A stretch of DNA of 64,000 bases, taken from NCBI GenBank assembly GCA_945862235.1, contig CAMAYU010000009.1:1-64000 (forward strand), read 5' to 3'. The notes beneath the pieces were generated by a model that saw only the letters and a program-made list of their open reading frames with translations, did no database searches and was not told the DNA's origin. A program made the translations under genes and the position numbers. This stretch comes from Schlesneria paludicola DSM 18645. GTDB taxonomy: Bacteria; Planctomycetota; Planctomycetia; Planctomycetales; Planctomycetaceae. This document shows, in pieces, positions 4,195 through 63,203 of this stretch (position 1 is its first letter; each line of letters opens with the position of its first letter).

Positions 4195-4199
4195 TTTGC

Positions 4200-5077: not shown

Positions 5078-5527
5078 TTACCAAGTCACTGGAGCTGGAT
5101 TGGCCACAGCAGTAGAGGCATCGTTGACTCGAAGTTCCCCGTTCGCCACGTCATAGGACCAGCCGCCCGCCGTACCGACGGTCGCCGTGATTGGACTCGT
5201 TCCGGCGACCACGGTGGCGACTTGATTCGCGGTCGTGACTTGGTTGATCGGGAACGGGCCGCTCAGGAACGGCATCAAACCAGAGTTCGTATTGATGTTG
5301 GCCAGAGTCGGGAACGTCCCATTTTGCGAGCGATAGAGTTCGAGTGCGTCGCGCAACACCATCAACGATTGCTTCGTACCGCTGACGCGGGCGTTGGTCG
5401 CGGTATTCATCATCTTGGGAGCGGCAACGGCCGTCAGGATGCCGATCACCAGCACCACGATGACTAATTCGACAAGTGTGAATCCACGGCGTTTAGTCCC
5501 ACGATTGCTGGACGGGGTGAGCATCAT
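5078..5527 (-). CDS. Type IV/type II prepilin-like protein with prepilin N-methylation motif
   Basis: MMLTPSSNRGTKRRGFTLVELVIVVLVIGILTAVAAPKMMN; GFTLVE motif. Confidence 0.9.
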   Translation of the reverse strand: MMLTPSSNRGTKRRGFTLVELVIVVLVIGILTAVAAPKMMNTATNARVSGTKQSLMVLRDALELYRSQNGTFPTLANINTNSGLMPFLSGPFPINQVTTANQVATVVAGTSPITATVGTAGGWSYDVANGELRVNDASTAVANPAPVTW

Positions 5528-6181
5528 TTTCAGTTTCTCTGTTCGTTCGGCGAGTCAGTCACAGGTTGACCGAGCCTCCGTCGAGAGAGACTCATTACTG
5601 CCGATTTCATCCGCCGCGACTGAAGACAGAAGTGAGCCTAGTTCACAAATCGCGAAGGGCAAGTTGCGGTTCGGAAACATGTGGCAAAAATCATCGGGAC
5701 CGGTGGGAGAGAACAACGCCGACTCGTCGTTCCCGTTCCGTGAGCGGCAGGAGATCGCGTCCAGTCGTCGCAGTCGTGAGACTTCAGACCGAAGTCTCAC
5801 GACTTCCGCTACGGGACTGGACAGCCGTGGCATTCGCCTGAGCGCTGTCGGCTGACTGGCGCAGCCTCCCTCACGATGGACACGCCCGGCTCACCGTTTC
5901 TGTCGGAGGCATCTTGGTTGGAAGGCACGGCGCGAGTCGTATCGGTCGCATGACTTGTTCGCGTTCCAGCATCTGCGATGACGCCATGTGCTGCGGTTGA
6001 TCGGTGTCTTGCCTCTCGGACTCAGGCGGATTTGCGAAGTCGGATCTCTGACCTAGGTTGACGGAACGTTGATTGAGGTTGCGATCCTGATCGGATTGCG
6101 GGCGGCCGAGCGACCGTTACCGCGACCACAACTTCGTGAGTTTGCTTCCTGTGTTTCCCTGTTGACCAACCAACACCCCAC

Positions 6182-7939: not shown

Positions 7940-7984
7940 GAAGGCAAGCCTTACCGAGCCAATCCAGGAACCTTCACCAATAGT

Positions 7985-8260
7985 ACCGACTGCTGACGTT
8001 ACAGATGAACGGTGGCACCGTGCAGAACGCGGCGGGAACGGCACTGACGGGCTACACCGGCTGGACGCGGGCGGTGGTCATCCAAGAACGCCTATTCCGT
8101 CTTGAGCAACAACGCGACGGACCAAGGCTTGCGTGCGGTCACCGTTACAGTCACGTCTCCTTCTGGAAAAACGACAACCACCAAGGTCTATCGCAGTAAC
8201 ATCGGCGGAACGCAGCAACCGCTCTCCGCGAACGCCACGCTGGTGACGTGAGTCGGGCGC
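7985..8260 (+). pseudogene. Decayed pseudopilin/PilV-like fragment
   Basis: Pieces in different frames: MNGGTVQNAAGTALTGYTGWTRAVVIQ / YSVLSNNATDQGLRAVTVTVTSPSGKTTTTKVYRSNIGGTQQPLSANATLVT. Confidence 0.4.
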
Positions 8261-8483
8261 ACACTGAAGCTGGGACCAACGCACCCACGACGACCGGCGT
8301 CTCGATCAGTAACCATGCGGAGGATCAATGATGCGCCGCAGTTCACTTTGGACAACACTTCCGCACCCTGCACGGGCGCGGACGGTGACGCCGCCCGGCT
8401 CACCGAATTCGGACTTCTGTCGGTTACGTCAAAATGGCGATTTCGCGACGTAAGTCTTTTCATTGCTAGCGTGACCCGTTTTT

Positions 8484-8710
8484 GCGCAGACGACTTTTTT
8501 AGGCGCGCAGACGACTTTTTGTGTCGCGCAAACCACTTGGAGCAGCGCGCAGACGCCTCTTTGACCAGCGCAGACCACTTTGTGAGGCGCGCAGACGACT
8601 TTGTGAGGCGTGCAGACGGTCTGCGCTGATAAAAAAGACGTCTACACGACCCTCAAAGACGTCTACACGACCAAAAAAGTCGTCTGCGCGCTGCTCAAAG
8701 TCGTCTGCGC
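8484..8710. repeat. 21-bp-period repeat array: 7 direct units then 5 inverted units
   Basis: GCGCAGACgACTTT-type units start at 8484, 8505, 8526, 8547, 8568, 8589, 8610; reverse-complement units (GTCTGCGC/GTCTACAC) start at 8619, 8640, 8661, 8682, 8703. Confidence 0.9.
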
Positions 8711-8784
8711 TGGTCAATGCGGCGTTTATTACGGGACAAAAGGCGTTTCGGAGCGGGGCCGCAATCACTTCCCGAACTCAAACT

Positions 8785-8867
8785 TGTGTGACTGCGGTCG
8801 GCGCTTTGCCGCCCCCAGATTGGGGTGAATCCCGCTTCGCTGGGGGCCGCGAAGCGCCGACCCCACT
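8785..8867. repeat. Palindromic repeat (GGTCGGCGCTTTGCCGCCCCCAG ... CTGGGGGCCGCGAAGCGCCGACC)
   Basis: Inverted arms; related element at 57484-57600. Confidence 0.75.
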
Positions 8868-8869
8868 GG

Positions 8870-9239
8870 CACTGAACGGCGGCACGATCGCGTGGCGGTT
8901 CGTCGATCTCGATGGCCTGCTCCTGCACGTTCAACTACTCGATGGCTTCGGCACGCTCGTCCCCGTCGATGGAGTTATCGACGTGCCATTGGCGACCGAA
9001 ACGAAGCTCGCCAAAGGGGGCCGATCAAACTTTCGCGACGGCAATTCGCGATGACAATTCGCGACGACAACACGTTCAGTGTCCCCGAACGCTGGTTCGT
9101 CCCGATTCGGGCGATCGACTTCGACGCGACAGGAACCACAGTCAAGCTGCCATTCCGCCCCTACAGCCGCTTCCGTGACGAGCTGCAGGAGCTACGCGGC
9201 CAGAGACTCTTCCCCGGCGAAGCAACGCCGAAGTGGTGA
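8870..9239 (+). pseudogene. Frameshifted remnant of an uncharacterised ORF
   Basis: LNGGTIAWRFVDLDGLLLHVQLLDGFGTLVPVDGVIDVPLATETKLAKG(frameshift)ADQTFATAIRDDN(13-bp duplication)NTFSVPERWFVPIRAIDFDATGTTVKLPFRPYSRFRDELQELRGQRLFPGEATPKW. Confidence 0.45.
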
Positions 9240-9283
9240 GGGCCGTGGAGAGTTAGCGCGTAGACCTCGCGCGGTCTGTAATG

Positions 9284-9475
9284 AGACCTCTGAGCGGGGC
9301 GGCGTCAGCCCCCCGGTTCTTGGGCGTAAGCCCTCTTCAGAAGAACCGGGGGGCTGACGCCCAATGGCACTCACTTTGTCACTCACTCCGTTTACCGGCG
9401 ACTAGCGCCGTGCCGCTCAAAGTGAGTGCCATTGGGCTGACGCCGCCCAGCTCGGAAACCTCTCAATTGGTGCCT
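9284..9475. repeat. Nested palindromic intergenic repeat, copy 2, core loop flipped relative to copy 1
   Basis: GAGCGGGGCGGCGTCAGCCCCCCGGTTCTTGGGCGTAAGCCCTCTTCAGAAGAACCGGGGGGCTGACGCCCAATGGCACTCACTTTG...CAAAGTGAGTGCCATTGGGCTGACGCC. Confidence 0.85.
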
Positions 9476-9491
9476 GCCCCCTTGTTCCCGT

Positions 9492-11213
9492 TCACGGCGA
9501 CACAACCCGTATCAGCTTCGCCTTCGGCTCGATCCACAGACGCCCTTTCATCGCACGCAGCTCCGCGACCAGTTCCACGTCGCGGATGGCATCGACCACT
9601 TCAAAGTCGTAGCCGACGGTCTGCCAGTCGGTGTCTCCTTCCAGTGAGTTGTCACGTTTACCACCCGAGATGCGGAGACCCGCCCCCTTCCCTTGCTCAT
9701 CGGTGCGAGGCTCGACTCCTGCCGTTTTCAAGCGGACTTCAATCCGATAGCGACCCGGCCCGAGCAACACGCGCCGCCGAAATGACGCCACGCATTGGCC
9801 CGATTCGCCGACTTGGATCGAGTACTTCTTGTTCTCTGTCTCCGGATCGACTTCGTCGAGCAACGCGTCCCCCGTCTCTTGGGCACCGTACCAGTCGGCC
9901 ACTTCGATCTGGTTCGACTCATCGAACTCGATCGGCGTCGGATCGCCTTGTTCGAGTTGCTCGCGCAGAGCAGGCTCGCGCGCCGCAATTCGTTCCTTCA
10001 CCTCACGCACTCGGTCGGCGAAGGCTTGCTCGAAGTGATCCCCTTGTCGGTGAACGACGAGGGCTAGTCGCGAGACCAAGGCGTCGATGCGCTCGTTCGA
10101 TCGCTTGGCCTCGAACAACGGCAGCATCTCGATCACGCGGTCTTTGTACCGCTCTCGCCACTCGGGATTGTGCATCACCGCACTCGAGACAATGGCCGGC
10201 GGAAACTCCAAGATCGGGAAGCCGGGATCTTGAAACATCTGGTCCATGCCGTGAGGCAAGAACCGGGCGCGACCGTCTTTCGGTGAGAAGTAGATGCGGT
10301 AGTTGTTCTTGTTCGGCGTGTAGCCGTCCCAGTGACAGGTCATCCGCTCGAAGGCCATGAACGTGAGGAACGCATCCACGTCGAGCTGCTGCTCTATCGC
10401 GGGCCAACGGGCAGCGGCATCGGGTTCCTCGCACGCGGCCTTCAACGCGTGCAAGTCGCTGTGATCGTCCGGCCCCTTCCCCGAGTCCTTCTCCAGATCG
10501 ACATCGACATCCTGCACGAAGCCGCCGTCGTAGAGGTTGCCGGTCGCGTCGCCGAAGTGCCGCGTGAGGAACTGCCTGTCGAACCCTTCCTTCAGCACAT
10601 AGAAGCCGAGATCGCGACCGTTGAGCCAGACGCGGGCATGAGTGACTCGCGTGGCGGGGACCTTCGCATCGCGCGCGATCTCCGCACAAACCCACTCGCA
10701 CAGATACGACTCGTCCTGCACCGAGTTATTCAGATGGAGCTTGTCCAATCCGTGAAAGGTCTGTCCCTTGGCGTGCTTGTTCATGTTGAGCGTGAACGCG
10801 GGCTTGTCGTCCAGTTCACGAGAACTCCCCGCCGCTCCCTTCACCTTGATCGCGACCTCGGTGTAGGTCGTCTCCAGCGGTGAGTCAGGCTTGTCGGGGT
10901 TCGGCAGCGTTTCGACGATCGTGCATTTGACGTAACGCCGCAGGTCCTCGCGCAGCTTCGTCTCCTGCGACTTCTTCAACTCGATCCGAATCTCGGGAAC
11001 AAGGCCGCTGCCAAAGAAGACGTCACTCGGATCGACGGCCTTCGCGGCGGCAGCTAAGCCGGTGGCCTCAATCGCGGACAAAGGCGGCTTGCCCGCAACT
11101 CCGTTCGTCGCGACAGGAGCTTTGACCGTCGAGTCGCGGCACGACACGACGCTCATCAGCAGCAGAGCGGCGAGGAGACGCCAGCTTGAACATGGTTTGA
11201 GGAACGTGGTCAT
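9492..11213 (-). CDS. CotH kinase family protein (putative lipoprotein)
   Basis: KVKGAAGSSRELDDKPAFTLNMNKHAKGQTFHGLDKLHLNNSVQDESYLCEWVCAEIAR...VWLNGRDLGFYVLKEGFDRQFL...MPHGMDQMF region; N-terminus LLLMSVVSC. Confidence 0.85.
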   Translation of the reverse strand: MTTFLKPCSSWRLLAALLLMSVVSCRDSTVKAPVATNGVAGKPPLSAIEATGLAAAAKAVDPSDVFFGSGLVPEIRIELKKSQETKLREDLRRYVKCTIVETLPNPDKPDSPLETTYTEVAIKVKGAAGSSRELDDKPAFTLNMNKHAKGQTFHGLDKLHLNNSVQDESYLCEWVCAEIARDAKVPATRVTHARVWLNGRDLGFYVLKEGFDRQFLTRHFGDATGNLYDGGFVQDVDVDLEKDSGKGPDDHSDLHALKAACEEPDAAARWPAIEQQLDVDAFLTFMAFERMTCHWDGYTPNKNNYRIYFSPKDGRARFLPHGMDQMFQDPGFPILEFPPAIVSSAVMHNPEWRERYKDRVIEMLPLFEAKRSNERIDALVSRLALVVHRQGDHFEQAFADRVREVKERIAAREPALREQLEQGDPTPIEFDESNQIEVADWYGAQETGDALLDEVDPETENKKYSIQVGESGQCVASFRRRVLLGPGRYRIEVRLKTAGVEPRTDEQGKGAGLRISGGKRDNSLEGDTDWQTVGYDFEVVDAIRDVELVAELRAMKGRLWIEPKAKLIRVVSP

Positions 11214-50676: not shown

Positions 50677-51588
50677 ATGTCCGCGAGACCCACTTCCATT
50701 GTGACTCCCGTCCTCAAGACGACGCTTTATGACCGGGCGAGTTCGTGGTCGATGGTGTTGTTCGCGGCGGTCGGCATCGTCTGCTTGGGTGTCGTGTCGA
50801 AGTGGCTGGCTGACCGGCTCCCTCCTCCCCCGGAAGGGGTGACGATGGAGTTGGTCGAGTTGCCCGGCGGGTTCGAGGATGGAACACCCGGTGAAACGTT
50901 GCGGGTCGATTCTCCATTGCCCGAGGTGCGCGATGCCGCTCCCGTAGAAGAGGTTTCGGATCGCGTGGAGATCGCCGAAGCCCTTTCGACCGTAGCCGAC
51001 GCGGCGGAATCGGGAGTCGGTCTGGCAGTGGCCTCCGATCAGAGTCAGCCTCAATTCGACACCGGCATCGAAAACAAAGGGCGTCCGGGAAGCGCGAAGG
51101 GAACGGGACGGAAGGGACTCGGCGTGGGAGGCGGGACCGGCGGGTTTCCTCGCGAACAGCGTTGGTTCGTCCGTTTTGGAGATAAGGCGGGTATCGATGA
51201 ATACGCCAAGCAACTCGGCTTCTTCGGTGTGGAGTTGGGGGCACTGCTGCCAGACAGTCGGCTGGCCTATCTCTCGAAGTTGAATCAGCCCGTGCCCGAT
51301 GTTCGCTACGTGAAGACCGGGAAAGACGAACAACGACTCTACATGACGTGGCAGGGTGGCGATCGTCGCGGTGCCGATGTCGAGTTGTTCAAACGAGCGA
51401 ACATCGACGTGGGACCGGACACGGTCATCTTCCACTTCTATTCCAAGGCAACCGAATCGAAGCTGGCTCAACTCGAACGAGATTACAAAGGTCGCCCGGT
51501 CGGAGTGATTCGTCGCACGTATTTTGTGGTGGAGGTCGTGGCGGGTGGTTATCAGTTCGCCGTCACACGCCAGACGTATTTTCAATGA
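50677..51588 (+). CDS. Single-TM periplasmic protein, possible TonB/TolA functional analogue
   Basis: N-terminal TM SWSMVLFAAVGIVCLGVVSKWLADRLPPPPE, low-complexity linker, globular C-terminus; immediately upstream of ExbB/ExbD. Confidence 0.6.
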   Translation: MSARPTSIVTPVLKTTLYDRASSWSMVLFAAVGIVCLGVVSKWLADRLPPPPEGVTMELVELPGGFEDGTPGETLRVDSPLPEVRDAAPVEEVSDRVEIAEALSTVADAAESGVGLAVASDQSQPQFDTGIENKGRPGSAKGTGRKGLGVGGGTGGFPREQRWFVRFGDKAGIDEYAKQLGFFGVELGALLPDSRLAYLSKLNQPVPDVRYVKTGKDEQRLYMTWQGGDRRGADVELFKRANIDVGPDTVIFHFYSKATESKLAQLERDYKGRPVGVIRRTYFVVEVVAGGYQFAVTRQTYFQ

Positions 51589-51613
51589 GTTCGTTCAACC
51601 GCGATTTGGAAGG

Positions 51614-51683
51614 CGTAGGGTAAGCGTCTCGCTTGCCCTTTTTTCCAACGGCAGTCACGGGCAAGCGAGACGCTTACCCTACG
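51614..51683. repeat. 'CGTAGGGTAAGCGTCTCGCTTGCCC' palindrome
   Basis: CGTAGGGTAAGCGTCTCGCTTGCCC...GGGCAAGCGAGACGCTTACCCTACG. Confidence 0.85.
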
Positions 51684-51702
51684 TTTGTTCCCGAAGTCCG
51701 GC

Positions 51703-51769
51703 TGACACTAACCCGAAGCGTAAGCGAGGATGCGACACATGTCCTCGCTCACGCTTCGGATTGGTGTTG
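51703..51769. repeat. 'NPKRKRG' palindrome
   Basis: ACACTAACCCGAAGCGTAAGCGAGGA...TCCTCGCTCACGCTTCGGATTGGTGT. Confidence 0.8.
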
Positions 51770-51883
51770 CCAAGGCCGTTTGAGAACCACTTCCTCGCTC
51801 TGTAGCATCGCACCGCGTTCGTGTTTGAGATGAGCTGGCCGCTGACCGTATGAGATAAGCTGGCCGCTGGCCAAGGAGTTGAA

Positions 51884-52507
51884 ATGCACACGACCGACCT
51901 CGTCAAATGGCTGGAGAAGTTCAGCTACGGTTTCCTCGCCCTCAATTTCTTGTGGGGGATGTACTGCGTGATCCTGAACTGGCGGCGGTTGTCTCAGTTG
52001 CGGTTCCGCTCGGTGGAGGCGGAGGCGGCGTTCCTCGACGAATTGCAGGGGCATCTGCAAAAGAAGGACTACGACTCGGCGATCAAACAGTGCGACTTCG
52101 ACTTCCGCGCCCTGCCCCGCCTAGTCCTGTTGATGATTGCCAACCGCGCGCAGCCGTTTCAGCAACTTCGGCAACGCGTCTCGACTTCGATGCAGCGCGA
52201 CATCCTGGCGGACCTCGAATACCGCGTCAGTTGGATCGTCACCGTCATCAAGAACGGCCCGTTGCTCGGTCTGTTCGGGACGGTGCTCGGGATGATGGCC
52301 GCGTTCGGGCGCATCGGTACCGGTGAGAAGATTCAACCATCGCAGATCGCGGATGAAATCAGTATCGCTCTGATCTGTACGGCGATGGGTCTCGGGACAG
52401 CCATCCCGCTGGGATACATCCTGTCCAGCATGTCGATCCGATTGAGGCTGCTTCAGGAATCACTGGCGTCGAGTCTAACTCAAGTGTTGGAACACTTCCG
52501 TAACTGA
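51884..52507 (+). CDS. MotA/TolQ/ExbB proton channel family protein
   Basis: ILADLEYRVSWIVTVIKNGPLLGLFGTVLGMMAAFGRIGTGEKIQPSQIADEISIALICTAMGLGTAIPLGYILSSMSIRLR. Confidence 0.92.
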   Translation: MHTTDLVKWLEKFSYGFLALNFLWGMYCVILNWRRLSQLRFRSVEAEAAFLDELQGHLQKKDYDSAIKQCDFDFRALPRLVLLMIANRAQPFQQLRQRVSTSMQRDILADLEYRVSWIVTVIKNGPLLGLFGTVLGMMAAFGRIGTGEKIQPSQIADEISIALICTAMGLGTAIPLGYILSSMSIRLRLLQESLASSLTQVLEHFRN

Positions 52508-52517
52508 CTTTTCCATG

Positions 52518-52602
52518 TCGTAGGGTGCGTGGAGTCTTCGGAACGCACCGTATCGAGCCTCGTTTGCAAGGTGCGTTCCGAAGACTCCACGCACCCTACA
52601 CA
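52518..52602. repeat. 'GTAGGGTGCGTGGAGTCTTCGGAACGCACC' palindrome
   Basis: GTAGGGTGCGTGGAGTCTTCGGAACGCACC...GGTGCGTTCCGAAGACTCCACGCACCCTAC, about 30-bp arms. Confidence 0.85.
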
Positions 52603-52622
52603 TATCACGCCATGAGCCGCCC

Positions 52623-53108
52623 ATGACTTCCGCCTCGCATTCGCCGAGTCTCGATGATCCCGACAACCCGTTGTTGGCACCTCGCAAACTTGAGGCCGAC
52701 GCCAATTTCGATGTCACGGCGATGATCGATCTCGTGTTCATGATGAACATCTATTTTCTCGTCACGACGCTCGGCGCGGCGGCGGGTGAGTTGAATCTGC
52801 CCGCAGCCAAACACTGTGTGGCGGCGGATCGCGAAACGTCGGTGATCGTCTCGATTATTGAAGGCGTCGATCGTTCGGCCGGTCAGGTTTACGTCGGTGA
52901 TGGGCGTGAGGGCGAACCGCTCGTCGAACGGGAGGAGCAAGAGAAGGCCGTTCGGGCGGCGGTCGAAGAGGGAGTGAGATCACAGAAGAACACGGTCCTC
53001 ATCAAAGCGGAAAAGAACGTCCGGCTGCGTGATGTGGCCCGAGTGGCTGCTGCTGCGGCGGGTGTCGCTGGCATGGAACTCAAGCTGGCCGTTATCGAAA
53101 AGGAGTAG
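52623..53108 (+). CDS. ExbD/TolR family biopolymer transport protein
   Basis: ADANFDVTAMIDLVFMMNIYFLVTTLGAAAGELNLPAAKH... Confidence 0.88.
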   Translation: MTSASHSPSLDDPDNPLLAPRKLEADANFDVTAMIDLVFMMNIYFLVTTLGAAAGELNLPAAKHCVAADRETSVIVSIIEGVDRSAGQVYVGDGREGEPLVEREEQEKAVRAAVEEGVRSQKNTVLIKAEKNVRLRDVARVAAAAAGVAGMELKLAVIEKE

Positions 53109-53114
53109 TCCGTC

Positions 53115-53756
53115 GTGTCGGTTCGGTTTGCCTGTCCCCGCTGCCGTACGAAGCTGAAGGTCGATGACGACGTCGCAGGCCAGATCGCCGCTTGTCCCGG
53201 CTGCGGTCGCAAGCTCGACGTGCCGCAGGCAACCGCACGGGTGAAGTCGGCGATCAAGCGGCGTTCCAAAACGTCGGTGCCAGAGGACTCGCGCCATCCC
53301 GATGACGATGAGCCACCGTTGGTCAAGATGTCCCCCTCCATCGACCACGAAGAATTGATCGACATGACGGCGATGGTGGACATCGTTTTCTTCCTGCTGA
53401 TTTTTTTCCTAGTGACTTCGATGCAGTCGCTCGATTCGGCGATCCCGATGCCCAGCCCTGATCCTCAAAAAGGGGCCGGGCGCGAACAGAAAACAGACGA
53501 TCCCGAATCCGACGACGACTATGTCATCGTCCGCATCGACAAGAATGACGCGATCCAGGTCGATGGCGTCGCGGTGCAGGACGTTCCGGATTTAATCGCC
53601 AAACTGCGCGAACTCCGCTTCGGTGCGAAGCAGTCCACCAAAATGCTCGTGGTCGGCAACGGAGATGCCTCGCACGGGATGACCGTCGCCGTAATGGACT
53701 CCGGCCACGAAGCGGGGATGGAACGAATTCGGCTGTCGATCTCGGATGAAGAATGA
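53115..53756 (+). CDS. ExbD/TolR family protein with N-terminal zinc ribbon
   Basis: SVRFACPRCRTKLKVDDDVAGQIAACPGCGRKLDVP then EELIDMTAMVDIVFFLLIFFLVTSMQSLDSAIPMP. Confidence 0.9.
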   Translation: MSVRFACPRCRTKLKVDDDVAGQIAACPGCGRKLDVPQATARVKSAIKRRSKTSVPEDSRHPDDDEPPLVKMSPSIDHEELIDMTAMVDIVFFLLIFFLVTSMQSLDSAIPMPSPDPQKGAGREQKTDDPESDDDYVIVRIDKNDAIQVDGVAVQDVPDLIAKLRELRFGAKQSTKMLVVGNGDASHGMTVAVMDSGHEAGMERIRLSISDEE

Positions 53757-53764
53757 ATGAACGA

Positions 53765-53852
53765 CATTTCCAAACTAGCCCGACGCGCAAGCGAGGGCTT
53801 CGCTGCATCGAACGTCCAGCCCTCGCTTGCGCGTCGGGCTAGTTTGGAAATG
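53765..53852. repeat. Palindrome with 35-bp perfect arms ('TAGCCCGACGCGCAAGCGAGGGCT' family)
   Basis: CATTTCCAAACTAGCCCGACGCGCAAGCGAGGGCT - loop - AGCCCTCGCTTGCGCGTCGGGCTAGTTTGGAAATG. Confidence 0.92.
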
Positions 53853-53897
53853 CCCACTGTCCACTCCCCACTGGCTCCTACTTCCTGACTTTCCACC

Positions 53898-56800
53898 ATG
53901 CCGTTGCTGAAACTTCAATACCCTGACGGTTCCGAGCAGGAGCGCGAATTGTCTCGCTCGCAGCCGCTGTCGATCGGTCGTCAATCGTTCAACGATGTCT
54001 GCGTTGCTGAGGACGGCGTCGGGGCGATGCACTGCCGGATCAGTTGGAACAAGACGGCGTTCGAGGTAACGGCGGCCACGGCCTCGGGAGTCGATGTCAA
54101 CGGGACATCGGTCGCGCGGGCGACCCTTCAGTCAGGCGATACCCTCCGTATCGGCAGCCTCGATCTGGTCTATCTCGACTCCCAAGCTGGGTACACGGAC
54201 GACGAAGACTCCGGGATTCGCTTCAAGGTGGTGGAGCAGGCGGCTCGCGCGAAAGCGGACTTGCCGTTGAAGCTGGTGCCGCCGATCCCCGAACCGAAGT
54301 CGAGCAGTCGCGCCGACAAACCGAAGCGACCGCCCGAGCTGCCCATCGAGCCGCCTCCCAAACCTGTCGAAGACATGTCGCTGTTCATGGGTGCGGTCTA
54401 TACGGAATCGCAGGCACTCCCCGTCGCGGCGTTTGATGATGAGGACGATGACGACGACTCAAGCCAACGCACGCTGTCCCGATCATCGAGGTCTTCGTCC
54501 AACGATTTATCGTCGAAGAAAGGTTCTCCGGTGTTGTCGGTCCCGACCGGACGCCGACGGCCGGGTGAGCAGGATATTTTCACGTCGCCCCTCTTCATGG
54601 GTTTGAGTATTGGCGGCGTGGTGCTGCTCCTCGTGACCGGGATCTTCTGGTTCCTGATGGCGCGCGAGCAAACCTCGCGGTTGTTTGCCCAAGCGCAGAG
54701 CGAACTGGCCAACGGACAACCGGTTCAGGCCGCAGCCTCTTTCGAGGCCTTCGTGAAGACTTATCCGCGACACGCGCTGCGGCGTCAGGTTGATCGTGGG
54801 CTGGACCAAGCCCTCGTGCAGAAGGAAACGACGGGAGCCGCCCCGGCGTGGAAGAAGGGTCTCGAGCAGCTACAGAAACTGATCTCGAACCACCGCGCGG
54901 AATCCGACTTTGCCGAGCTGCACCCGGTGCTGTTCAAGCTTTCGGAAGAGATCGCGATCGGTGCGGCGCAGACCGCCGAATCGGCGCGCGATGCGCAACT
55001 GCTCATCGTCTCGGACGAAGCTCGTTCGCTGATGGAGCGGTACGCCGATCCCACCAACCCGCCGACGGCGACGCTCGCTCGCATCAAGACGGCAAAGGAC
55101 TCCGCTGAGAACGCGATTGGCAAACAAAACACGTTTGACTCGGCAATGACGGCGGTTGAAACGGCGCTCGCCAACAAACAGCCGATCGTCGCGCTGGCTG
55201 AGCGTGAGAAGCTCGTCCGGCGGTTCGCCGACTACGCCAACTTGAAGCGGGTGAAAACTGCGTTGCAGAAGTCACTCGATCTGGAGCGGTCGGTCATTGC
55301 GACCGACGAAACCGAACGAGCCGCTGAAACGAATGAGGAAGAATCGGCGCTGGCCTCCCCTGCTCTGGGACTGTTCCATACGCGGTCGCGCACGGAAGAA
55401 GTCTCTGCCGGTCGCGTCGCTTATGCCGTGGCCAAGGACAGTTGTTACGCGGTCGATACGGTGACGGGCGAACTCGTCTGGCGGCGCGTCATCGGTCTGG
55501 ATGCTCCGTTCTTTCCGTTGCTTGCCAAAGCGACTCAGCCCTCGTTGCTGCTGTACGACGCGCGGCGGCAGTCACTCCTGTGCTGTCAGCCCACCTCGGG
55601 GAAACTGATCTGGCGACTGAAGCTTGATGGCCGGCCGCGTTCGGCTCCGCTAGTGCATGAAGGTCAAATCTATCTTCCGACCGACGACCGCGCGTTGTGC
55701 CGAGTCGATCTCGATTCGGGACGACTCACCGCGAAAGTGGTGTTCTCGCAGAACGTGCTCGGTCCACCGGCCCTCTCTCACGATGGTGGCCATCTGCTGA
55801 TGGCGGGCGAGCTGGCGATGATCTATGCGCTGACGATGCGACCGCTGGGCGCGGCGGCGATGACGTTCACCGATCACGCGGCCGGAGCGATCACCGCGCC
55901 GCCGTTGTCGATGGGAAAGCTGCTGCTGCTGTGCGACAACGATCAGGCCGACAGCACACGGCTGCGAGTTTGGAACGCGGAACAGCCCGCCGCGCCCCTC
56001 GTGGAATTGACCGGCGAGCACATGACCGGCGCGCGGGTGTCAGGCTCCGTGCGCGAACCGGCCGTCTTGCGCGGCAACCAACTGGTCGTCCCCTCGAGCA
56101 ACGAACATCTCGCCGCGTTCTCGGTCACGGATGAAGCGGGTCGCGCGGGACTGGCTCCCGTCGCGCAGTACCGCGTGAAGGGCGGATACGGGGGACCGAT
56201 GTTCGTGGCCCTCGGTCCCGATCGACAATTCTGGGCGGCCAGTTCCGCGTTTCGTCGGTTTGAAATCGGAGCCGACACGATTCGGATGGACCAGAACTCG
56301 CAATCGCCGGGAATCGCCTCGCAGCCGTTGCAGTCTGTCGGCGAGCAGTTCTTCGTCGGTCGCAAGGCTCCGTTCCACGATGCCACGACGTTCTCGGCCG
56401 TTGATCGCGAACGGATGACCAGCCCGTGGCGCACGGTTGTCGGGGCCGAGCCATTGGAACTCGTGGCGGCTCGCGGCGCTGGGGGGTCGGTCGCCGTGAG
56501 CGAAGCGGGTCAGACCGTGTTGCTCGGGCCAAACCGCTTGAAGCAGGGTGGCTTCGATTTGAAAGCGGCCACGGAATTGGAGCTGCCGGCCGGAGTGAAA
56601 CAGCCGCTGCGCGCGAGTCGTCTGCACGATGGCCGGATCGCTGTCGCCGCGTCGGGAGAGACCACTCACGTTTGGATCGTGAACGGTTCGGGACAAGCCG
56701 ACGCGCTGTTCAAGCTGGGGAACGAGGATGTGGTGGAAGCCAACCCAGTGTTGTTCGATGACGGTCTCGTCGTGCCGTTAATCGGGCGTTTGAAACTGCT

Positions 56801-57461
56801 GCCACTCGGTTCCAACAAAAAAGCCGTGCAGGATTGGCTCGCACCGCAGGGCGAACAGCCCGCGCCGCACTGGCGGTTCTTGACGCGACTCGACGGCAAC
56901 GAGTTAATTGCGTGCGATGAGACCGGCCTGCTGACTCGCATCCAACTCCGCGCGACTGACGTGCCACATCTGGCCGGAGCATCGAAGCTGCAACTGGCGC
57001 AACCGGTGGACGTGGCTCCCGGCCTGCGCGGCGAAGCGTTCTTCGTCGCGGATGCCTCGGGCGCTGTGAGGCAACTCAACGCACGCTCGTTCGACATCGA
57101 CGGGCAGCGGACGTTTGAGTCACCCGTGCGCGGTGTCTGGTCGGTCGGTGAATCGCTGCTCGTCTGGTCTGGTGACGAGAAGCTGCATGCGGTCACACCC
57201 GGTCGAGAGTTGCCGGAACGCTGGTCGCTCGCGCTGACGAACCGCCGCCCGGCCGGAGCGCCGGTCGAATGGTCGGGGCGCATCTGGGTGGCGTGTCGCG
57301 ATGGCTTGGTCGTCGCGCTCGAACCGGCGACGGGGGTTGAGTCGCAACGGATCGAGCTGCCGCAAACACTGAGTCTCGGCCTGCGCGTGATCGGCGACGA
57401 CCTGTTCGCGGTGGCGTGTGATGGCTCGCTGTATCGCCTCTTGGCAAAGGGGCAGCCATGA
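53898..57461 (+). CDS. FHA domain - TM - helical repeat - PQQ-like beta-propeller protein
   Basis: FHA: LSIGRQSFNDVCVAEDGVGAMHCRISWNKTAFEV..; TM FMGLSIGGVVLLLVTGIFWFLMA; propeller units VAKDSCYAVDTVTGELVWRRVIG, LLCCQPTSGKLIWRLKLDGRPRSAPLV. Confidence 0.85.
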   Translation: MPLLKLQYPDGSEQERELSRSQPLSIGRQSFNDVCVAEDGVGAMHCRISWNKTAFEVTAATASGVDVNGTSVARATLQSGDTLRIGSLDLVYLDSQAGYTDDEDSGIRFKVVEQAARAKADLPLKLVPPIPEPKSSSRADKPKRPPELPIEPPPKPVEDMSLFMGAVYTESQALPVAAFDDEDDDDDSSQRTLSRSSRSSSNDLSSKKGSPVLSVPTGRRRPGEQDIFTSPLFMGLSIGGVVLLLVTGIFWFLMAREQTSRLFAQAQSELANGQPVQAAASFEAFVKTYPRHALRRQVDRGLDQALVQKETTGAAPAWKKGLEQLQKLISNHRAESDFAELHPVLFKLSEEIAIGAAQTAESARDAQLLIVSDEARSLMERYADPTNPPTATLARIKTAKDSAENAIGKQNTFDSAMTAVETALANKQPIVALAEREKLVRRFADYANLKRVKTALQKSLDLERSVIATDETERAAETNEEESALASPALGLFHTRSRTEEVSAGRVAYAVAKDSCYAVDTVTGELVWRRVIGLDAPFFPLLAKATQPSLLLYDARRQSLLCCQPTSGKLIWRLKLDGRPRSAPLVHEGQIYLPTDDRALCRVDLDSGRLTAKVVFSQNVLGPPALSHDGGHLLMAGELAMIYALTMRPLGAAAMTFTDHAAGAITAPPLSMGKLLLLCDNDQADSTRLRVWNAEQPAAPLVELTGEHMTGARVSGSVREPAVLRGNQLVVPSSNEHLAAFSVTDEAGRAGLAPVAQYRVKGGYGGPMFVALGPDRQFWAASSAFRRFEIGADTIRMDQNSQSPGIASQPLQSVGEQFFVGRKAPFHDATTFSAVDRERMTSPWRTVVGAEPLELVAARGAGGSVAVSEAGQTVLLGPNRLKQGGFDLKAATELELPAGVKQPLRASRLHDGRIAVAASGETTHVWIVNGSGQADALFKLGNEDVVEANPVLFDDGLVVPLIGRLKLLPLGSNKKAVQDWLAPQGEQPAPHWRFLTRLDGNELIACDETGLLTRIQLRATDVPHLAGASKLQLAQPVDVAPGLRGEAFFVADASGAVRQLNARSFDIDGQRTFESPVRGVWSVGESLLVWSGDEKLHAVTPGRELPERWSLALTNRRPAGAPVEWSGRIWVACRDGLVVALEPATGVESQRIELPQTLSLGLRVIGDDLFAVACDGSLYRLLAKGQP

Positions 57462-60400
57462 ACGAACGAAGCGAAGTTCAGAGAGGCCGAGTGATGTGTG
57501 GCTGGGGTCGACGTTTCGCCGCCCCCAGACGCGAGTGCGATCCCGTGTTAAGGCGTGTCGGCGATCACTGGGGGCCGCGAAGCGCAGATCCCAGCCACAC
57601 AGCGCTCAGCCTGACGCGACACTTCGTGGGCGTCGCGGTACTCGTGATGGGCCTCTTGGCTTCTGCCCGCTTCGCATTCGCTCAAGCATCCAAGGAAGAC
57701 GTTCCGCCGCCGAAGTACAGCGAGATGGTGTTGCCGTCGGGCGAAGACCTGTTGCGCGGCAAGCCGTTCGATTGGATCGTGCTGCGGACGGAAGACGTGC
57801 TGGTGGTTGAGCCGACTTCACCTCGCCCCGATCCGCTGGGACGGCTCACGCTGCGACACAAGCAAGCGGAAGTGGTTTATTTCCGCGCGTTGAAGTACCG
57901 ACCCGCGCGGATGGCTGAGGCCGATCAACTCTTGCAACGCGACCGGGGCGCAGACGCCGACAAAGTGCGAGCCGCCGTGGAGGTGCCGCTGGCTGCCGCT
58001 CGCAACCGAATGCAGGATTGTCAGGCGGCTCTACAAAAGTTGGCGGTCACGTTGCTCGATGACAGCGTCGATCCCGACTATGTGCTGGAGACACGATTCA
58101 TTCAGAGGATCGTGCATTACGAAGACTTGGTGCTGCGGCGCGTCGAGCAACTGGTCGCCGAGGGTCGCGTGTCGCTCGCTTACGACCTGATGCTGCTCGT
58201 GGGACGACGGCATCGCGACAACAACGCCCGCATCAAGGAAGAGTTGGAAGAGGATGAGGCGACCACCGCCTCCAACATCGCGGACCTGACGACTCGCCGC
58301 CAGGAGTTGCGCGACGAGCGCGAAGCCTTGAGAAAACTTCCCGCCTCCAAACGGACGGCCGGGTCGAAGAAGCGAGAATCGGATATCGATAACGGCATCG
58401 ATTCGTTCACGAAGGAGTCGAAGGAGTGGGAGGAAGACTTGGTGGCGATCCGCAAGAAACTGCGATTCGCTCGGCCGAAAGACTTCCCCAAACCGGACCC
58501 ACTTCAAAAGGACGACATCCTCTTTCCCTCGTGGCCGAAGTTTGACGAGACCTATGTGAAGTTGGTCTTGAAGGATGCCGAGTTACAAGCGGCTCGCAAC
58601 GACTTCGACGGCGCGTGGCGATTGCTCGAAGAGATTTGGAAACCGGGAGGGGTTGTCATTGGGTTGTCGGTTCAGATGGGGAGCGTCGTCGATCGCTTGG
58701 TCGGGCCGCTCGTCCAACGACAGGACTACCGGCAGGCCCGTCATTACATCAACCGCTTGGCCGCACTCGAACCGGAACATGCGACCGTTCAGAAATGGCG
58801 GGGACCGTTGATCGGACAGGCGAACGCGGCGATCGGTGACGCCCGCGCAGCAGCCTCGCGCGGTGAGGCTGCTGCCGCCGTGCAGAGCATCGAACGAGCC
58901 GCGCGCATCTGGCCCGAGTCACCCGGTTTGAAAGAGGCTCATCGCGAACTGACCGATCGACATCAAAGTGTGCGCGTTGGTGTGCTGCGAGTGGCAAACA
59001 CCGTCGCGAGTGGCCCGTTTCCGACTGCCGCCGAGGAACGGGCGCGATTGCTGATGACTCAAACGCTGTTCGAGCCGACGCGGATCGGCGAGCAGGGCGT
59101 GCGGTATCGCTCGTCCTACTTCGAGGCGTGGGAGCCGGCCGACTTGGGACGCGAGATCAAGTTCACACTCAAACTGCGGCGAGCCGATTGGGAGTCACGG
59201 GGACTCGTCACGTCGGCCGATGTTCAGTCGGAGCTGGCCGTGCGACTCGACCCGCAGCGGCCGAGTTTCGACGAACGGTTGGCAGGCTTCGTCGCAGGCA
59301 TCTCCGTACAAAGTCCGTCCGAGTTCACTGTGCGCTTTCACCGATTGCCGCTCCGCTTGGAGTCGCTCTGGCAATTCCCGGTCGCGGTGCAGCGGGGGTC
59401 GCTCTCGTTGAACGAAGACTTGTTGCCCGGCAACTTGTTGCGAGAGTCGGTATCCACACCAACCCGCAGCGTGAGCAAGGACGCCCCTCAGCAGGACTTA
59501 CCAGCGCCCGCCGCGCCACCGAGCGAGCGCGGTCTCGACGATCCCGCCGATGCGACTCGCCCCGATTCCATCGCCCCCGCAGCGCCGCCTTCTGTGCCGC
59601 TGCCTCCCCCTACGTCATCTCCGATCGCACCCTCCTTCGTCGCGTCGTCACTCGTCACGATCCCGGCAGAATTGGGGCGTCAACGATTCACACGTGTCTC
59701 CGCCAACGAGCACCAAGCCGTCTTTCATCGCGCGCGGCCACAGCCCGCTTCCACGCGGCTGCGTCACGTCAACGAAGTCGTCGAGGTGAAGTACGACTCG
59801 TGGGAAAAGTCGCTGCAAGGACTGCTGCGCGGGGAAGTGACGCTGCTCCCCACCGTGGACCTGCGGGACTTGAAGGGACTTCAAGACGACGGCCGGTTCT
59901 TCGTGATGCAGTACGCCCTGCCCCAGTCTCACTTCCTGATGTTTCAGTCGAAGACCGCCGCGCTGCGCGATGGTCAGTTGCGGCGAGCCATCCTGCACAC
60001 GGTGCCACGCGAGCGGCTGCTGCGCGAGGTCGTGCTGAAGGACGCCCCCGCGTCACACGGACGACTTGTCACCGGTCCGTTCGCCTCGTCGAGCTACGGT
60101 TACAACCGTTTGCTTAAGCCGCCCGCCTACGATCCACAGCTCGCCGCCGCACTGGCTCAAACGGCGAAGAAGCAACTCGGTGGAACACTTCCCCCGTTGC
60201 GGTTGCTCTGCCCCGATGACCCCGTTTTGCGCGAGGCGGCGCGCGCGATGATCGCTGAATGGAAGCGGGTCGGGCTGACCGTCACTCTCGTCGAAGATGC
60301 CGCACCGGATGCAGCTCTCACGCGAGACGACTGGGACATCTGTTATCGCACCGCGCGGTTCGTGGAGCCGATCGCGGACATCTGGCCGCTGCTGACTCTG

Positions 60401-60682
60401 CAAACGGAAGCCCGCGTTGCCGCGTTGCAGCCGCTGCCGGAACGGACGCGCCGCACGCTCTTGGAACTCGAACGAACTATCGACTGGACGACCGCGACCG
60501 CGTTGCTCCACCGGTTGCTCGGCGACCTGCTGACCGAGGCGCGTTACGTCCCGCTGTGGGAAGTGGATGAGTACCTCGTCACCCGCAAACATCTCATCGG
60601 GCTTCCGCCGCGCCCGATGCACACGTACGACGACATCGAACGCTGGACGCTGCAATCGTGGTATCCGCAGGACGCGCCGTGA
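57458..60682 (+). CDS. Secreted protein with N-terminal helical/coiled-coil region fused to family-5 (oligopeptide-type) solute-binding domain
   Basis: ATGA overlap with FHA gene; signal-like HFVGVAVLVMGLLASARFAFAQ; SBP part TQTLFEPTRIGEQGVRYRSSYFEAWEPADLGREIKFTLKLRRADWESRGLVTSADVQ...LRRAILHTVPRERLLREVV...TGPFASSSYGYN. Confidence 0.75.
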   Translation: MNERSEVQRGRVMCGWGRRFAAPRRECDPVLRRVGDHWGPRSADPSHTALSLTRHFVGVAVLVMGLLASARFAFAQASKEDVPPPKYSEMVLPSGEDLLRGKPFDWIVLRTEDVLVVEPTSPRPDPLGRLTLRHKQAEVVYFRALKYRPARMAEADQLLQRDRGADADKVRAAVEVPLAAARNRMQDCQAALQKLAVTLLDDSVDPDYVLETRFIQRIVHYEDLVLRRVEQLVAEGRVSLAYDLMLLVGRRHRDNNARIKEELEEDEATTASNIADLTTRRQELRDEREALRKLPASKRTAGSKKRESDIDNGIDSFTKESKEWEEDLVAIRKKLRFARPKDFPKPDPLQKDDILFPSWPKFDETYVKLVLKDAELQAARNDFDGAWRLLEEIWKPGGVVIGLSVQMGSVVDRLVGPLVQRQDYRQARHYINRLAALEPEHATVQKWRGPLIGQANAAIGDARAAASRGEAAAAVQSIERAARIWPESPGLKEAHRELTDRHQSVRVGVLRVANTVASGPFPTAAEERARLLMTQTLFEPTRIGEQGVRYRSSYFEAWEPADLGREIKFTLKLRRADWESRGLVTSADVQSELAVRLDPQRPSFDERLAGFVAGISVQSPSEFTVRFHRLPLRLESLWQFPVAVQRGSLSLNEDLLPGNLLRESVSTPTRSVSKDAPQQDLPAPAAPPSERGLDDPADATRPDSIAPAAPPSVPLPPPTSSPIAPSFVASSLVTIPAELGRQRFTRVSANEHQAVFHRARPQPASTRLRHVNEVVEVKYDSWEKSLQGLLRGEVTLLPTVDLRDLKGLQDDGRFFVMQYALPQSHFLMFQSKTAALRDGQLRRAILHTVPRERLLREVVLKDAPASHGRLVTGPFASSSYGYNRLLKPPAYDPQLAAALAQTAKKQLGGTLPPLRLLCPDDPVLREAARAMIAEWKRVGLTVTLVEDAAPDAALTRDDWDICYRTARFVEPIADIWPLLTLQTEARVAALQPLPERTRRTLLELERTIDWTTATALLHRLLGDLLTEARYVPLWEVDEYLVTRKHLIGLPPRPMHTYDDIERWTLQSWYPQDAP
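57484..57600. repeat. Palindrome inside the 5' end of the SBP-5 ORF
   Basis: GTGGCTGGGGTCGACGTTTCGCCGCCCCCAG...CTGGGGGCCGCGAAGCGCAGATCCCAGCCAC; same family as 8785-8867. Confidence 0.75.
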
Positions 60683-60746
60683 TCGAGTTCGGCGTCAGTT
60701 TGAGTGCCACAGTGCGAGCGAAGCCGTGAGAGGGAGTGAGAGAACC

Positions 60747-62351
60747 GTGAGTCGAAGTCGTTTCCTAAACAGTGCCGGGACGGGAACCGTAGTCCGGACT
60801 ACGGTCTCCGCTCATGACGACACTGCGAACCGATGCCCCGCACTTCAACCTCGCACTCACATCTCGCTCCTCGCCCTGCTGGTCGGGCTGATGTTGTTCG
60901 GTGCGACACCCGTCTCCGCCGCAGATCCCTCCGCCGAGCTACCCGTCGATGTGCGGCCCTATCGTGTCCGGTTGGCGATCGCGTTTGATGCGCCGCAGCT
61001 TTCGGAAGCGGCTCAGCGAGAAATGCTTCTTGCCACGGAGCAGGCGGCGCGGCGGTGTGTTGGTTCCATGTGGCAGTTGCGTGTGGAGTCTTTACCGTGG
61101 CTGCAACCGGTCAGTGCGGCGGGACTGTCGCGACTCAAAGTGGCCGAATTGGTCGAGCGTGCCGATCCGCAGGAACTGCCCGGTGAACCGGTGGAGGTTT
61201 GGTTTGTGGCCACCGTTCAAGCGGCTCGGCCCGGCTATCGGGTCGAGGTGCGAGCGTGGCAGCCAGAGATTCAACTTGCGCTGGCCAGTGTCGGCGAGCG
61301 CGTGGTCGATCCGCGCGACGTTCCGCTCGCCATTCTGAAGTTGAGTTGGCAGACGTTTCGCCCGGTCGGTGTCGTGGAAGGAGTGGACGGGCACACGGTG
61401 CAAGTTCGACTGCGTGCGGGGGCGCTCACTGCACCCGATGTCCGCTTCGCGCTGGCTCAACCGAAGGACATCTTCGTTCCGTCGATCGCCGTTCGCAGTC
61501 GCGAGAATCGAGTCGAGAGATTGTTGCCGATTCCGTGGACGTATCTCACCGCGACCGAGGTTTCCGGCTCATTGATGACGGCCAACGTCGGAAGTGGCCT
61601 TCGTTCGCCGATCAGTGCCAAGCAGCGCGGACGCAATGAGACGATCGTCGTGGCCGTGCGTCCACAGCAGCAGGTCACACGATTGGAACTGGCCACGCAA
61701 ACCAAGCCGTCGCTCCCGTTGGTCGCGCATCGCATCGAACTGTGGAGTTCACCCGCGACGCCGGTTCAAGACGATCCCGTCGCGCGGTTGGAGACACTCG
61801 TGGGAGAGTTGCTGACTGACCGACGTGGCCTCGTGACGATCGCCGTGGATCGCGAACGACCGCTCGTGTGGCTGTTCGCCTACAGCGGGCAATACCTGCT
61901 GGCACGAGTCCCCTTCGTCCCCGGAGTGGCTTCTCAGGTGAGACTCGAAGTTCCCGATGACTCCACCAGACTGGCGGCGGAAGCCGACGTGCAAATGCTT
62001 CAAGGGCAGCTCATCGACGCGGTCGCCGTTCGTAATACTCAGATCGGACTGATTCGAGCGGCCGCCAAGCAGCGAGACTGGAAAGAGCAGGAGTCCAGAC
62101 TGGCGGGACTCGCCAAGCTGGATGATGCCCAATCGTTTCTTGACCGCCTCGCCGCAGTGCGCGTCCCGGCGGTGAACGCCGCGAAGTCGCGCAAGGACAA
62201 GACCGGCGAGGCTCGGATCAACCGCCTCTGCGACGAAATGGCCACGCTGATCCGGCAGTACCTGAGCGAAGACCGAATCAAACAGCTCAACGAAGAAGCG
62301 ACGGAACTTCGCAAGGCCGATGCCGAAGCGGAGGAGAAGGAAAAGGGATGA
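60747..62351 (+). CDS. Secreted hypothetical protein; start uncertain
   Basis: THISLLALLVGLMLFGATPVSAADPSAELPVDVRPYRVRLAIAFDAPQLSEAAQREMLLATEQAARR...; candidate GTG start at 60747, ORF open from 60567. Confidence 0.6.
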   Translation: MSRSRFLNSAGTGTVVRTTVSAHDDTANRCPALQPRTHISLLALLVGLMLFGATPVSAADPSAELPVDVRPYRVRLAIAFDAPQLSEAAQREMLLATEQAARRCVGSMWQLRVESLPWLQPVSAAGLSRLKVAELVERADPQELPGEPVEVWFVATVQAARPGYRVEVRAWQPEIQLALASVGERVVDPRDVPLAILKLSWQTFRPVGVVEGVDGHTVQVRLRAGALTAPDVRFALAQPKDIFVPSIAVRSRENRVERLLPIPWTYLTATEVSGSLMTANVGSGLRSPISAKQRGRNETIVVAVRPQQQVTRLELATQTKPSLPLVAHRIELWSSPATPVQDDPVARLETLVGELLTDRRGLVTIAVDRERPLVWLFAYSGQYLLARVPFVPGVASQVRLEVPDDSTRLAAEADVQMLQGQLIDAVAVRNTQIGLIRAAAKQRDWKEQESRLAGLAKLDDAQSFLDRLAAVRVPAVNAAKSRKDKTGEARINRLCDEMATLIRQYLSEDRIKQLNEEATELRKADAEAEEKEKG

Positions 62352-62463
62352 GGTCTGGCTAAACCTCGCGCGGCGCGAGAGGAGAGGCTGGCAAGCCGAC
62401 GTACGAGAGGTCAGACCGTCGAACTCATGGTCGAACAGCTTGAGATTGCGGAGTTGTTCAAAT

Positions 62464-62532
62464 CTAGCCCGACGCGCAAGCGAGGGCTTCACCTTCATCG
62501 AATGCCCAGCCCTCGCTTGCGCGTCGGGCTAG
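62464..62532. repeat. Second 'TAGCCCGACGCGCAAGCGAGGGCT' palindrome
   Basis: CTAGCCCGACGCGCAAGCGAGGGCT...AGCCCTCGCTTGCGCGTCGGGCTAG between convergent genes; loop resembles that at 53765. Confidence 0.88.
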
Positions 62533-62543
62533 TTTTGAGAAGC

Positions 62544-63203
62544 TCACTCACCACTCTTCGTATCGAATGCCGCGCGGAATCCGGCGCTGTTGTTGACGTA
62601 GAGTTGGTACGTCGCGGCGAGTCGCTGTCGTTGAGCCTCGCTGAGTTCCTTCAACTGCCGGGCGGGACAGCCTGCCCAAAGCGTGTGCGGCGGAACGTGA
62701 GTCCCTTCCATCACGACGGCACCGGCGGCAATGAGTGCCCCCGCGCCGATCACGCAGCGGCTGAGAACTGTGGCGGAGATGCCAATCAACGCGCCGTCTC
62801 CCACGGTCGAACCATGAACGATCGCGCGGTGCCCGAGCGTGACGCGATCTCCAAGAATGCACGGATAGCCGTGATCGACGTGCAGGATCGAGCCGTCCTG
62901 CACGTTGGTCTCTTCACCGACCTCGATCCACTCGAAGTCGCCTCGCAAAACGCAGCCAAACCAAATCGAACTGCGCGCCTTCAAGCGGACTCGGCCCATC
63001 ACGATCGCGCCGGGTGCGACGAACGCCGTGGAGTCGATCACGGGGCGGGAATGAATCGCCCGCCAGTCCCAGTGAGAGTCGGGGTACGGTACCAGTGGCT
63101 CGGGTGGGAGCGACTCGCCGAGCAGCGGCCAGTCTCGCAGAAGAGTCTCGCGGTCGGTCGATACCGAGTCCACGTTGCGCGATGCTTCTGGCACGCTCTC
63201 CAT
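62544..63203 (-). CDS. Gamma-carbonic anhydrase-like hexapeptide-repeat protein
   Basis: AFVAPGAIVMGRVRLKARSSIWFGCVLRGDFEWIEVGEETNVQDGSILHVDHGYPCILGDRVTLGHRAIVHGSTVGDGALIGISATVLSRCVIGAGALIAAGAVV. Confidence 0.93.
   Translation of the reverse strand: MESVPEASRNVDSVSTDRETLLRDWPLLGESLPPEPLVPYPDSHWDWRAIHSRPVIDSTAFVAPGAIVMGRVRLKARSSIWFGCVLRGDFEWIEVGEETNVQDGSILHVDHGYPCILGDRVTLGHRAIVHGSTVGDGALIGISATVLSRCVIGAGALIAAGAVVMEGTHVPPHTLWAGCPARQLKELSEAQRQRLAATYQLYVNNSAGFRAAFDTKSGE

What the first reader, a model, noticed from the sequence alone, without database searches (positions are those of the whole stretch)
50677..62351. Candidate undescribed envelope machine: ExbB/ExbD motor with FHA/propeller receptor and a permease-less solute-binding protein
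Seven co-oriented genes lie close together: a single-TM TonB/TolA-like protein, ExbB, ExbD, zinc-ribbon ExbD, FHA-TM-propeller protein, coiled-coil/SBP-5 fusion, and a secreted protein. The FHA stop and SBP start overlap (ATGA). ExbBD motors normally power TonB or Tol, but no TonB-dependent receptor, Pal or TolB is present, and the SBP-5 protein has no ABC permease or ATPase nearby. Inference: a proton-driven trans-envelope complex with a cytoplasmic phosphothreonine input (FHA) and periplasmic ligand/propeller output.
Basis: partly seen in the sequence, partly recalled or inferred. Interest (0 to 1): 0.75.

Follow-up and report, generated by a model that had tools for sequence, protein, structure and literature searches.

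The report
Planctomycete proton-driven envelope machine, undescribed
Seven neighbouring genes, kept together as a set across almost a whole class of bacteria (Planctomycetia), appear to encode a proton-powered machine that pulls or pushes across the cell envelope; the window's genome and six family relatives show no recognisable TonB or TolB, so this may be their own version of that kind of machine.

Summary
In detail: seven same-strand genes at 50677-62351 (TM transducer-like, ExbB, ExbD, zinc-ribbon ExbD, FHA-TM-TPR-propeller, TPR/SBP-5, secreted protein). Their association is not accidental. Of 35 loci picked only for the first gene, with 10 kb on each side, 23 have all seven in the same order. 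The first gene occurs in 251 of 298 genomes of the class, the last in 259, both in 246. Where the unit is broken, at different joints in different lineages, the pieces persist elsewhere. The window genome and six family members have no TonB C-terminal domain, TonB-dependent receptor or TolB N-domain. Gene 1 looks like a TonB/TolA-type transducer: some distant homologues keep the TM Ser-x3-His, but its confidently predicted C-terminal domain matches no solved fold. Gene 7's model resembles FlgT and TolB. Best reading: a class-wide, Tol-like, proton-driven trans-envelope force system. Its output is unknown and all function is inferred. New variant of a known kind.

The parts
50677..51588 (+). 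Gene 1 (P0001, 303 aa): TonB/TolA-like putative force transducer; TM 17-45, disordered linker ~50-158 beginning with a motor-box-like hydrophobic stretch (GVTMELVEL), folded C-terminal domain 158-303 of unknown fold
   Evidence: AF2, CTD mostly pLDDT>90; no PDB fold match, best E 0.23; Ser-x3-His in some distant homologues
51884..52507 (+). Gene 2 (P0002): ExbB/TolQ-type proton channel; Thr133 and Thr166 invariant
   Evidence: ortholog scores far above paralogs
52623..53108 (+). Gene 3 (P0003): ExbD/TolR-type, TM with the conserved Asp (MIDLVF)
53115..53756 (+). Gene 4 (P0004): second ExbD with N-terminal Cys4 zinc ribbon and TM Asp (MVDIVF)
   Evidence: Cys4 in 13/13
53898..57461 (+). Gene 5 (P0005, 1187 aa): cytoplasmic FHA-like domain (degenerate pThr pocket), TM ~232-250, TPR-like stretch, periplasmic BamB/PQQ-type propeller
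57458..60682 (+). Gene 6 (P0006): secreted TPR/coiled-coil protein with C-terminal SBP_bac_5 domain; ATGA overlap with gene 5, real start uncertain because of a hairpin insertion at 57484-57612
60567..62351 (+). Gene 7 (P0007): secreted protein; ORF open from 60567, real start uncertain, possibly a GTG near 60726 or 60747; AF2 pLDDT 94, best fold matches FlgT and TolB
51614..51767 (.). Two hairpin spacer elements between genes 1 and 2
   Evidence: I5, I6
52520..52599 (.). Perfect 30-bp-arm hairpin spacer between genes 2 and 3
   Evidence: I4
53765..53852 (.). Perfect 35-bp-arm hairpin spacer between genes 4 and 5
   Evidence: I2
57484..57612 (.). Inverted repeat (45-bp arms, 82%) inside the annotated 5' end of gene 6
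   Evidence: similar ORF fragments elsewhere in the genome

Best explanation
The seven genes encode one proton-motive-force-driven trans-envelope machine, built like Tol or Ton but not a member of either, and characteristic of the class Planctomycetia. Likely mechanism: gene 2 (ExbB-type) forms the proton channel around an axle made of the two ExbDs (genes 3 and 4; gene 4 carries a cytoplasmic zinc ribbon). The motor drives gene 1, a TonB/TolA-type transducer with one TM helix, a stretch after it that resembles the motor box, a ~100-residue disordered linker and a C-terminal domain of new or very remote fold. That domain would reach periplasmic partners made in the same unit: gene 7 (TolB/FlgT-like fold), gene 6 (TPR plus SBP-5) and the propeller of gene 5, which crosses the inner membrane and exposes a variable cytoplasmic domain (degenerate FHA, helical domain, or kinase). 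The most likely output is Tol-Pal-like: mechanical coupling of inner membrane to cell wall and outer membrane in genomes without recognisable TolB or TonB. Shown by computation: gene content, order conservation, co-retention, domain and fold assignments, absence of TonB_C, TolB_N and TBDR in the window genome and six relatives. Inferred: complex formation, proton coupling, the partner of the gene 1 domain, the output.
For: Same seven genes in the same order in 12/12 class relatives found through gene 6 and in 23 of 35 full-flank loci chosen by gene 1 alone. Gene 1 in 251/298 and gene 7 in 259/298 class genomes, 246 with both (odds ratio ~129; Fisher p ~1e-28 ignoring phylogeny); outside the class only one marginal hit in 197 phylum genomes. 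The unit is broken at different joints, 1|2-3-4-5|6-7 in G386 and G357, 1-5-6-7|2-3-4 in G221, G320, G201 and G287, yet all seven are present. Motor residues intact. Some distant gene 1 homologues have Ser-x3-His in the TM (L195 SCLIHG, SAIIHG; L187 SLTVH) or TolA-like AVLLHV (L183, L185, L189). Gene 1 C-terminal domain confidently folded. Gene 7 model: FlgT E=1e-8, TolB E=6e-6. No TonB_C, TolB_N or TBDR in the window genome and six family genomes, with E. coli and two other controls positive. A published survey calls Tol-Pal 'largely reduced' in Planctomycetes (PMC8871954).
Against: No experiment. The His that docks TonB/TolA to the motor is missing from gene 1 in the window and most relatives, so docking must differ. 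Profile-sequence comparison finds no TolB similarity and no TolA similarity outside the TM. No outer-membrane barrel, lipoprotein or peptidoglycan-binding domain was recognised in the unit. Gene 1 is unlinked to the rest in several close relatives. Foldseek TM-scores for gene 7 are low (about 0.2), so its similarity to FlgT and TolB is partial. Co-occurrence counts are not corrected for shared ancestry.
Confidence: 0.6

Rival explanations
1. Energised import: a Ton-like system in which gene 1 drives uptake of large substrates through an unrecognised outer-membrane channel, with the SBP-5 domain of gene 6 catching the substrate in the periplasm.
For: Complete-looking SBP_bac_5 region with DppA/NikA-like matches, kept in all 12 relatives; ExbBD motors power TonB import elsewhere.
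Against: No TBDR in the window genome and six relatives; no ABC permease recognised among the most recurrent neighbours; a single class-wide locus is unlike substrate-specific uptake, which is usually multi-copy (own knowledge).
Confidence: 0.15
2. A gliding or surface-motility motor of the Agl-Glt kind.
For: Same outline: one ExbB, two ExbDs, an FHA-TM protein, TPR proteins; GltG of Myxococcus has FHA plus TM and interacts with AglR (PMC3169522).
Against: No TonB_C domain on the FHA protein here; FHA is not conserved; no Glt outer-membrane part recognised in the unit; present in most of the class, where gliding is not known to be general (own knowledge).
Confidence: 0.08
3. A signalling relay: a kinase/FHA-linked sensor in which the propeller and SBP-5 domain sense envelope or ligand state and modulate the motor.
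For: FHA, kinase-type helical domain or fused Ser/Thr kinase at the N-terminus of gene 5; convergent Ser/Thr kinase next to gene 7 in eight loci.
Against: FHA phosphothreonine pocket degenerate and domain absent in 16 of 59; the kinase is on the opposite strand and seems to belong to a conserved neighbourhood with a pseudouridine-synthase-like gene; does not explain motor plus transducer.
Confidence: 0.1
4. Chance neighbourhood of unrelated envelope genes.
For: Genes are scattered in several Schlesneria-like genomes.
Against: Identical order in 23/35 loci and 12/12 class relatives; co-retention when scattered.
Confidence: 0.03

Closest known systems
Tol-Pal system (TolQRA-TolB-Pal-CpoB)
   Same: Proton motor of the TolQ/TolR kind, single-TM transducer-like protein, periplasmic propeller, TolB/FlgT-like fold in gene 7, TPR protein, one locus
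   Different: Transducer C-terminal domain not like TolA; propeller sits on an inner-membrane protein; no Pal in the unit; two ExbDs, one with zinc ribbon; SBP-5 domain
TonB-ExbB-ExbD
   Same: ExbBD motor; TM of some distant gene 1 homologues with Ser-x3-His; stretch after the TM like the motor box
   Different: No TonB_C domain and no TonB-dependent receptor in the window's genome
PVC vWA force transducers (PMC12204202)
   Same: TM-linker-globular-domain transducer beside one TolQ-like and two TolR-like genes plus a TPR gene in PVC bacteria; published as of unknown function
   Different: No von Willebrand A match by Pfam or fold in gene 1; different partners. Other ExbB loci of the same genome (L224, L226) could be of that kind, not proved
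Agl-Glt gliding machine of Myxococcus (PMC3169522)
   Same: AglR/AglQ/AglS motor with FHA-TM protein GltG and TPR proteins
   Different: No TonB motif on the FHA protein, no Glt outer-membrane parts recognised
FlgT of Vibrio flagella
   Same: Best fold match of gene 7 (3w1e, E 1e-8)
   Different: No flagellar genes in the unit; similarity at fold level only

Membership tests
Tol-Pal | TolQ/TolR-type motor pair | tested here: met
   PF01618 and two PF02472 with motor residues; no NCBIfam equivalog cut-off reached
Tol-Pal | TolA with its C-terminal domain | tested here: not met
   no Pfam hit, no fold match, comparison with E. coli TolA aligns only 14 TM residues
Tol-Pal | TolB (N-domain plus propeller) | tested here: inconclusive
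   TolB_N absent by Pfam in 29 genomes, no sequence similarity to E. coli TolB, but the gene 7 model matches a TolB structure and gene 5 has a propeller
Tol-Pal | Pal lipoprotein in the locus | tested here: not met
   none among the seven; OmpA-domain proteins only elsewhere
TonB system | TonB_C domain | tested here: not met
   0 of 7 genomes of the window's family, E. coli control positive
TonB system | TonB-dependent receptor in the genome | tested here: not met
   0 of 7 genomes of the window's family
TonB/TolA-type force transducer | TM helix with Ser-x3-His motor-docking motif | tested here: inconclusive
   His absent in the window and most members; in register in six distant homologues, three of them with Ser-x3-His
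TonB/TolA-type force transducer | TM, disordered linker, folded C-terminal domain | tested here: met
   AF2 model
PVC vWA transducers | von Willebrand A domain | tested here: not met
Agl-Glt | FHA-TM protein with TonB-like C-terminus (GltG) | tested here: not met
   C-terminus is a propeller
FHA phosphothreonine receptor | Arg, Ser and Asn of the pThr pocket | tested here: not met
   window: Arg28 and Asn68 present, Ser position is Gly42; across relatives Arg 10/43, Ser 0/43, Asn 42/43
SBP-dependent ABC importer | permease and ATPase with the SBP | tested here: not met
   none in 50677-62351; none recognised among the top recurrent neighbour families; flanks not scanned for PF00528
Zorya and other defence systems | PADLOC profiles | tested here: not met
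   no hits
Tol-Pal or Ton | function (outer-membrane stability or energised uptake) | not testable with these tools
   needs mutants

The most novel reading that the evidence does not exclude
Planctomycetia, which lack FtsZ, lack recognisable TolB and, in this family, TonB, run their own proton-driven envelope-coupling machine with a new class of force transducer (gene 1). It would take the place of Tol-Pal, for example in budding division or outer-membrane upkeep, and in some lineages be tied to Ser/Thr kinase signalling.
Probability: 0.35. Interest if true: 0.88.

Novelty: new variant of a known kind. Interest (0 to 1): 0.7.

Why it matters
Planctomycetes build and divide a diderm envelope without several parts thought general, and how their inner and outer membranes are mechanically coupled is open. 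A class-wide set of seven genes with a proton motor, a transducer domain of unknown fold and TolB/FlgT-like periplasmic parts gives a direct genetic handle: genes 1 and 7 are single-copy in most genomes, and the class has members that can be grown and mutated in the laboratory. It would add a further class to the motor-driven force transducers recently said to remain undiscovered (PMC12204202).

Tried and rejected
PDB profile searches with genes 1 and 7: nothing credible. Comparison of gene 7 with E. coli TolB and gene 1 with E. coli TolA: no real match. Phage-defence reading tested and rejected. Rfam: no RNA family in the region. Promoter/terminator scan at chance level. Search for the conserved upstream toroid gene or the kinase in the window: none. 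Literature: no paper found naming this locus; the P. limnophila essential-gene paper does not mention Tol, TonB or ExbB in its main text; R. baltica exbB/exbD are salt-induced, but it was not checked whether these are the orthologs. A first count of FHA pocket residues was off by one position and was redone.
Full report
What is there. Pfam confirms ExbB, two ExbDs, FHA and PQQ/BamB propeller repeats on gene 5 and SBP_bac_5 on gene 6; genes 1 and 7 match nothing, even as family alignments. ExbB keeps its two Thr, both ExbDs keep the TM Asp, and the second ExbD has a Cys4 ribbon in 13 of 13 sequences.

Is it a unit? A search of 197 genomes of the phylum with gene 6 found strong full-length matches only in the same class; all 12 such genomes carried the seven genes in the same order and strand. 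Because that sample was chosen through gene 6, I repeated it with gene 1 alone in named genomes: of 35 loci with 10 kb on both sides, 23 hold 1-2-3-4-5-6-7, three hold 1-5-6-7, one 1-2-3, and the other eight have gene 1 without an intact neighbouring unit. The closest named relatives are Schlesneria (61-65% identity in gene 1). Class-wide, gene 1 is in 251 and gene 7 in 259 of 298 genomes, both in 246, neither in 34 (contingency counted by hand from the listings; not corrected for phylogeny). Outside the class the gene 1 profile gave one marginal hit.

Broken units. In two Schlesneria-like genomes the set lies as 1 | 2-3-4-5 | 6-7; in f77 and f86 genomes as 1-5-6-7 | 2-3-4; in G345 as 1 | 2-7. 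All seven were present in G386, G357, G221, G320, G201 and G287. In G392 gene 5 was not located. The distant family f78 keeps divergent copies of genes 1, 2-4 and 6, in two genomes with gene 1 convergent to 4-3-2.

Gene 1. AlphaFold2 on 85 sequences gives a TM helix 17-45, a low-confidence linker and a C-terminal domain 158-303 mostly above pLDDT 90. Foldseek against the PDB finds nothing (best E 0.23; the whole model with its linker was searched). The TM lacks the His of the SHLS motif that docks TonB and TolA (motif: PMC12204202), but six distant homologues have His in that column, three of them as Ser-x3-His, the others as AVLLHV, close to TolA's SAVLHV. I therefore read gene 1 as a TonB/TolA-type transducer whose C-terminal domain was replaced or has diverged beyond recognition, and whose docking changed. 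This is inference.

Genes 5, 6, 7. The gene 5 N-terminus varies: FHA in 40 of 59 by Pfam (43 by motif), a helical domain of the kind seen before the neighbouring planctomycete kinases in others, a fused kinase in one, nothing recognisable in some. Forty members also match the FHA-like YscD domain, which is a structural ring domain in type III secretion (own knowledge). Gene 6 is secreted, with TPR-like repeats and an SBP-5 region kept in all relatives. Gene 7, modelled at pLDDT 94, matches FlgT (1e-8) and TolB (6e-6); TM-scores are low and the sequence comparison with E. coli TolB is negative, so this is a fold-level lead.

Genome context. The window genome and six genomes of its family have no TonB_C, no TonB-dependent receptor and no TolB_N, while controls rang; OmpA-domain proteins are present. 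A published survey also reports a largely reduced Tol-Pal in Planctomycetes (PMC8871954). The genome has five further ExbB-like loci, some with paired ExbDs and TPR or TM proteins, which may be the published vWA-type sets, not proved.

Extra neighbours. A secreted alpha/alpha-toroid plus HEAT protein lies directly upstream, same strand, in 21 of the surveyed loci, often within a few bases, but not in the window. A convergent Ser/Thr kinase lies beside gene 7 in eight loci.

Judgement. Observation confirmed. Interpretation partly right: a real, apparently undescribed, class-wide proton-driven trans-envelope unit is well supported by comparative genomics; the phospho-input is not; the output is open, with a Tol-like role most likely.

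Noticed in passing
L041:17912-19501, L049:15188-16984, L202:1673-3463 and 18 more loci: A secreted alpha/alpha-toroid (prenyltransferase/squalene-cyclase-like) plus HEAT protein sits directly upstream of gene 1 on the same strand in 21 loci; possible eighth member, not adjacent in the window.
   Followed up: partly
L043, L048, L049, L191, L192, L196, L201, L202: A Ser/Thr kinase gene converges on gene 7 within ~200 bp; in L202 a kinase is also fused to the N-terminus of gene 5.
   Followed up: partly
window 51614-51767, 52520-52599, 53765-53852, 57484-57612, 62451-62545: Hairpin spacer elements with 25-45 bp arms fill gaps between genes; the one at 57484 makes up the first codons of the annotated gene 6, and similar ORF pieces occur elsewhere in the genome.
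   Followed up: partly
L226 (G000:C36) 836-8657 and L224 (G000:C30) 7196-10266: Other ExbB loci of the same genome with two ExbDs, a TPR gene (L226) and an unassigned TM protein (L224); candidates for the published vWA-type transducer sets.
   Followed up: partly
L183, L185, L187, L189, L195: Distant gene 1 homologues keep the TonB/TolA-type His in the TM helix, lost in the window's family.
   Followed up: yes
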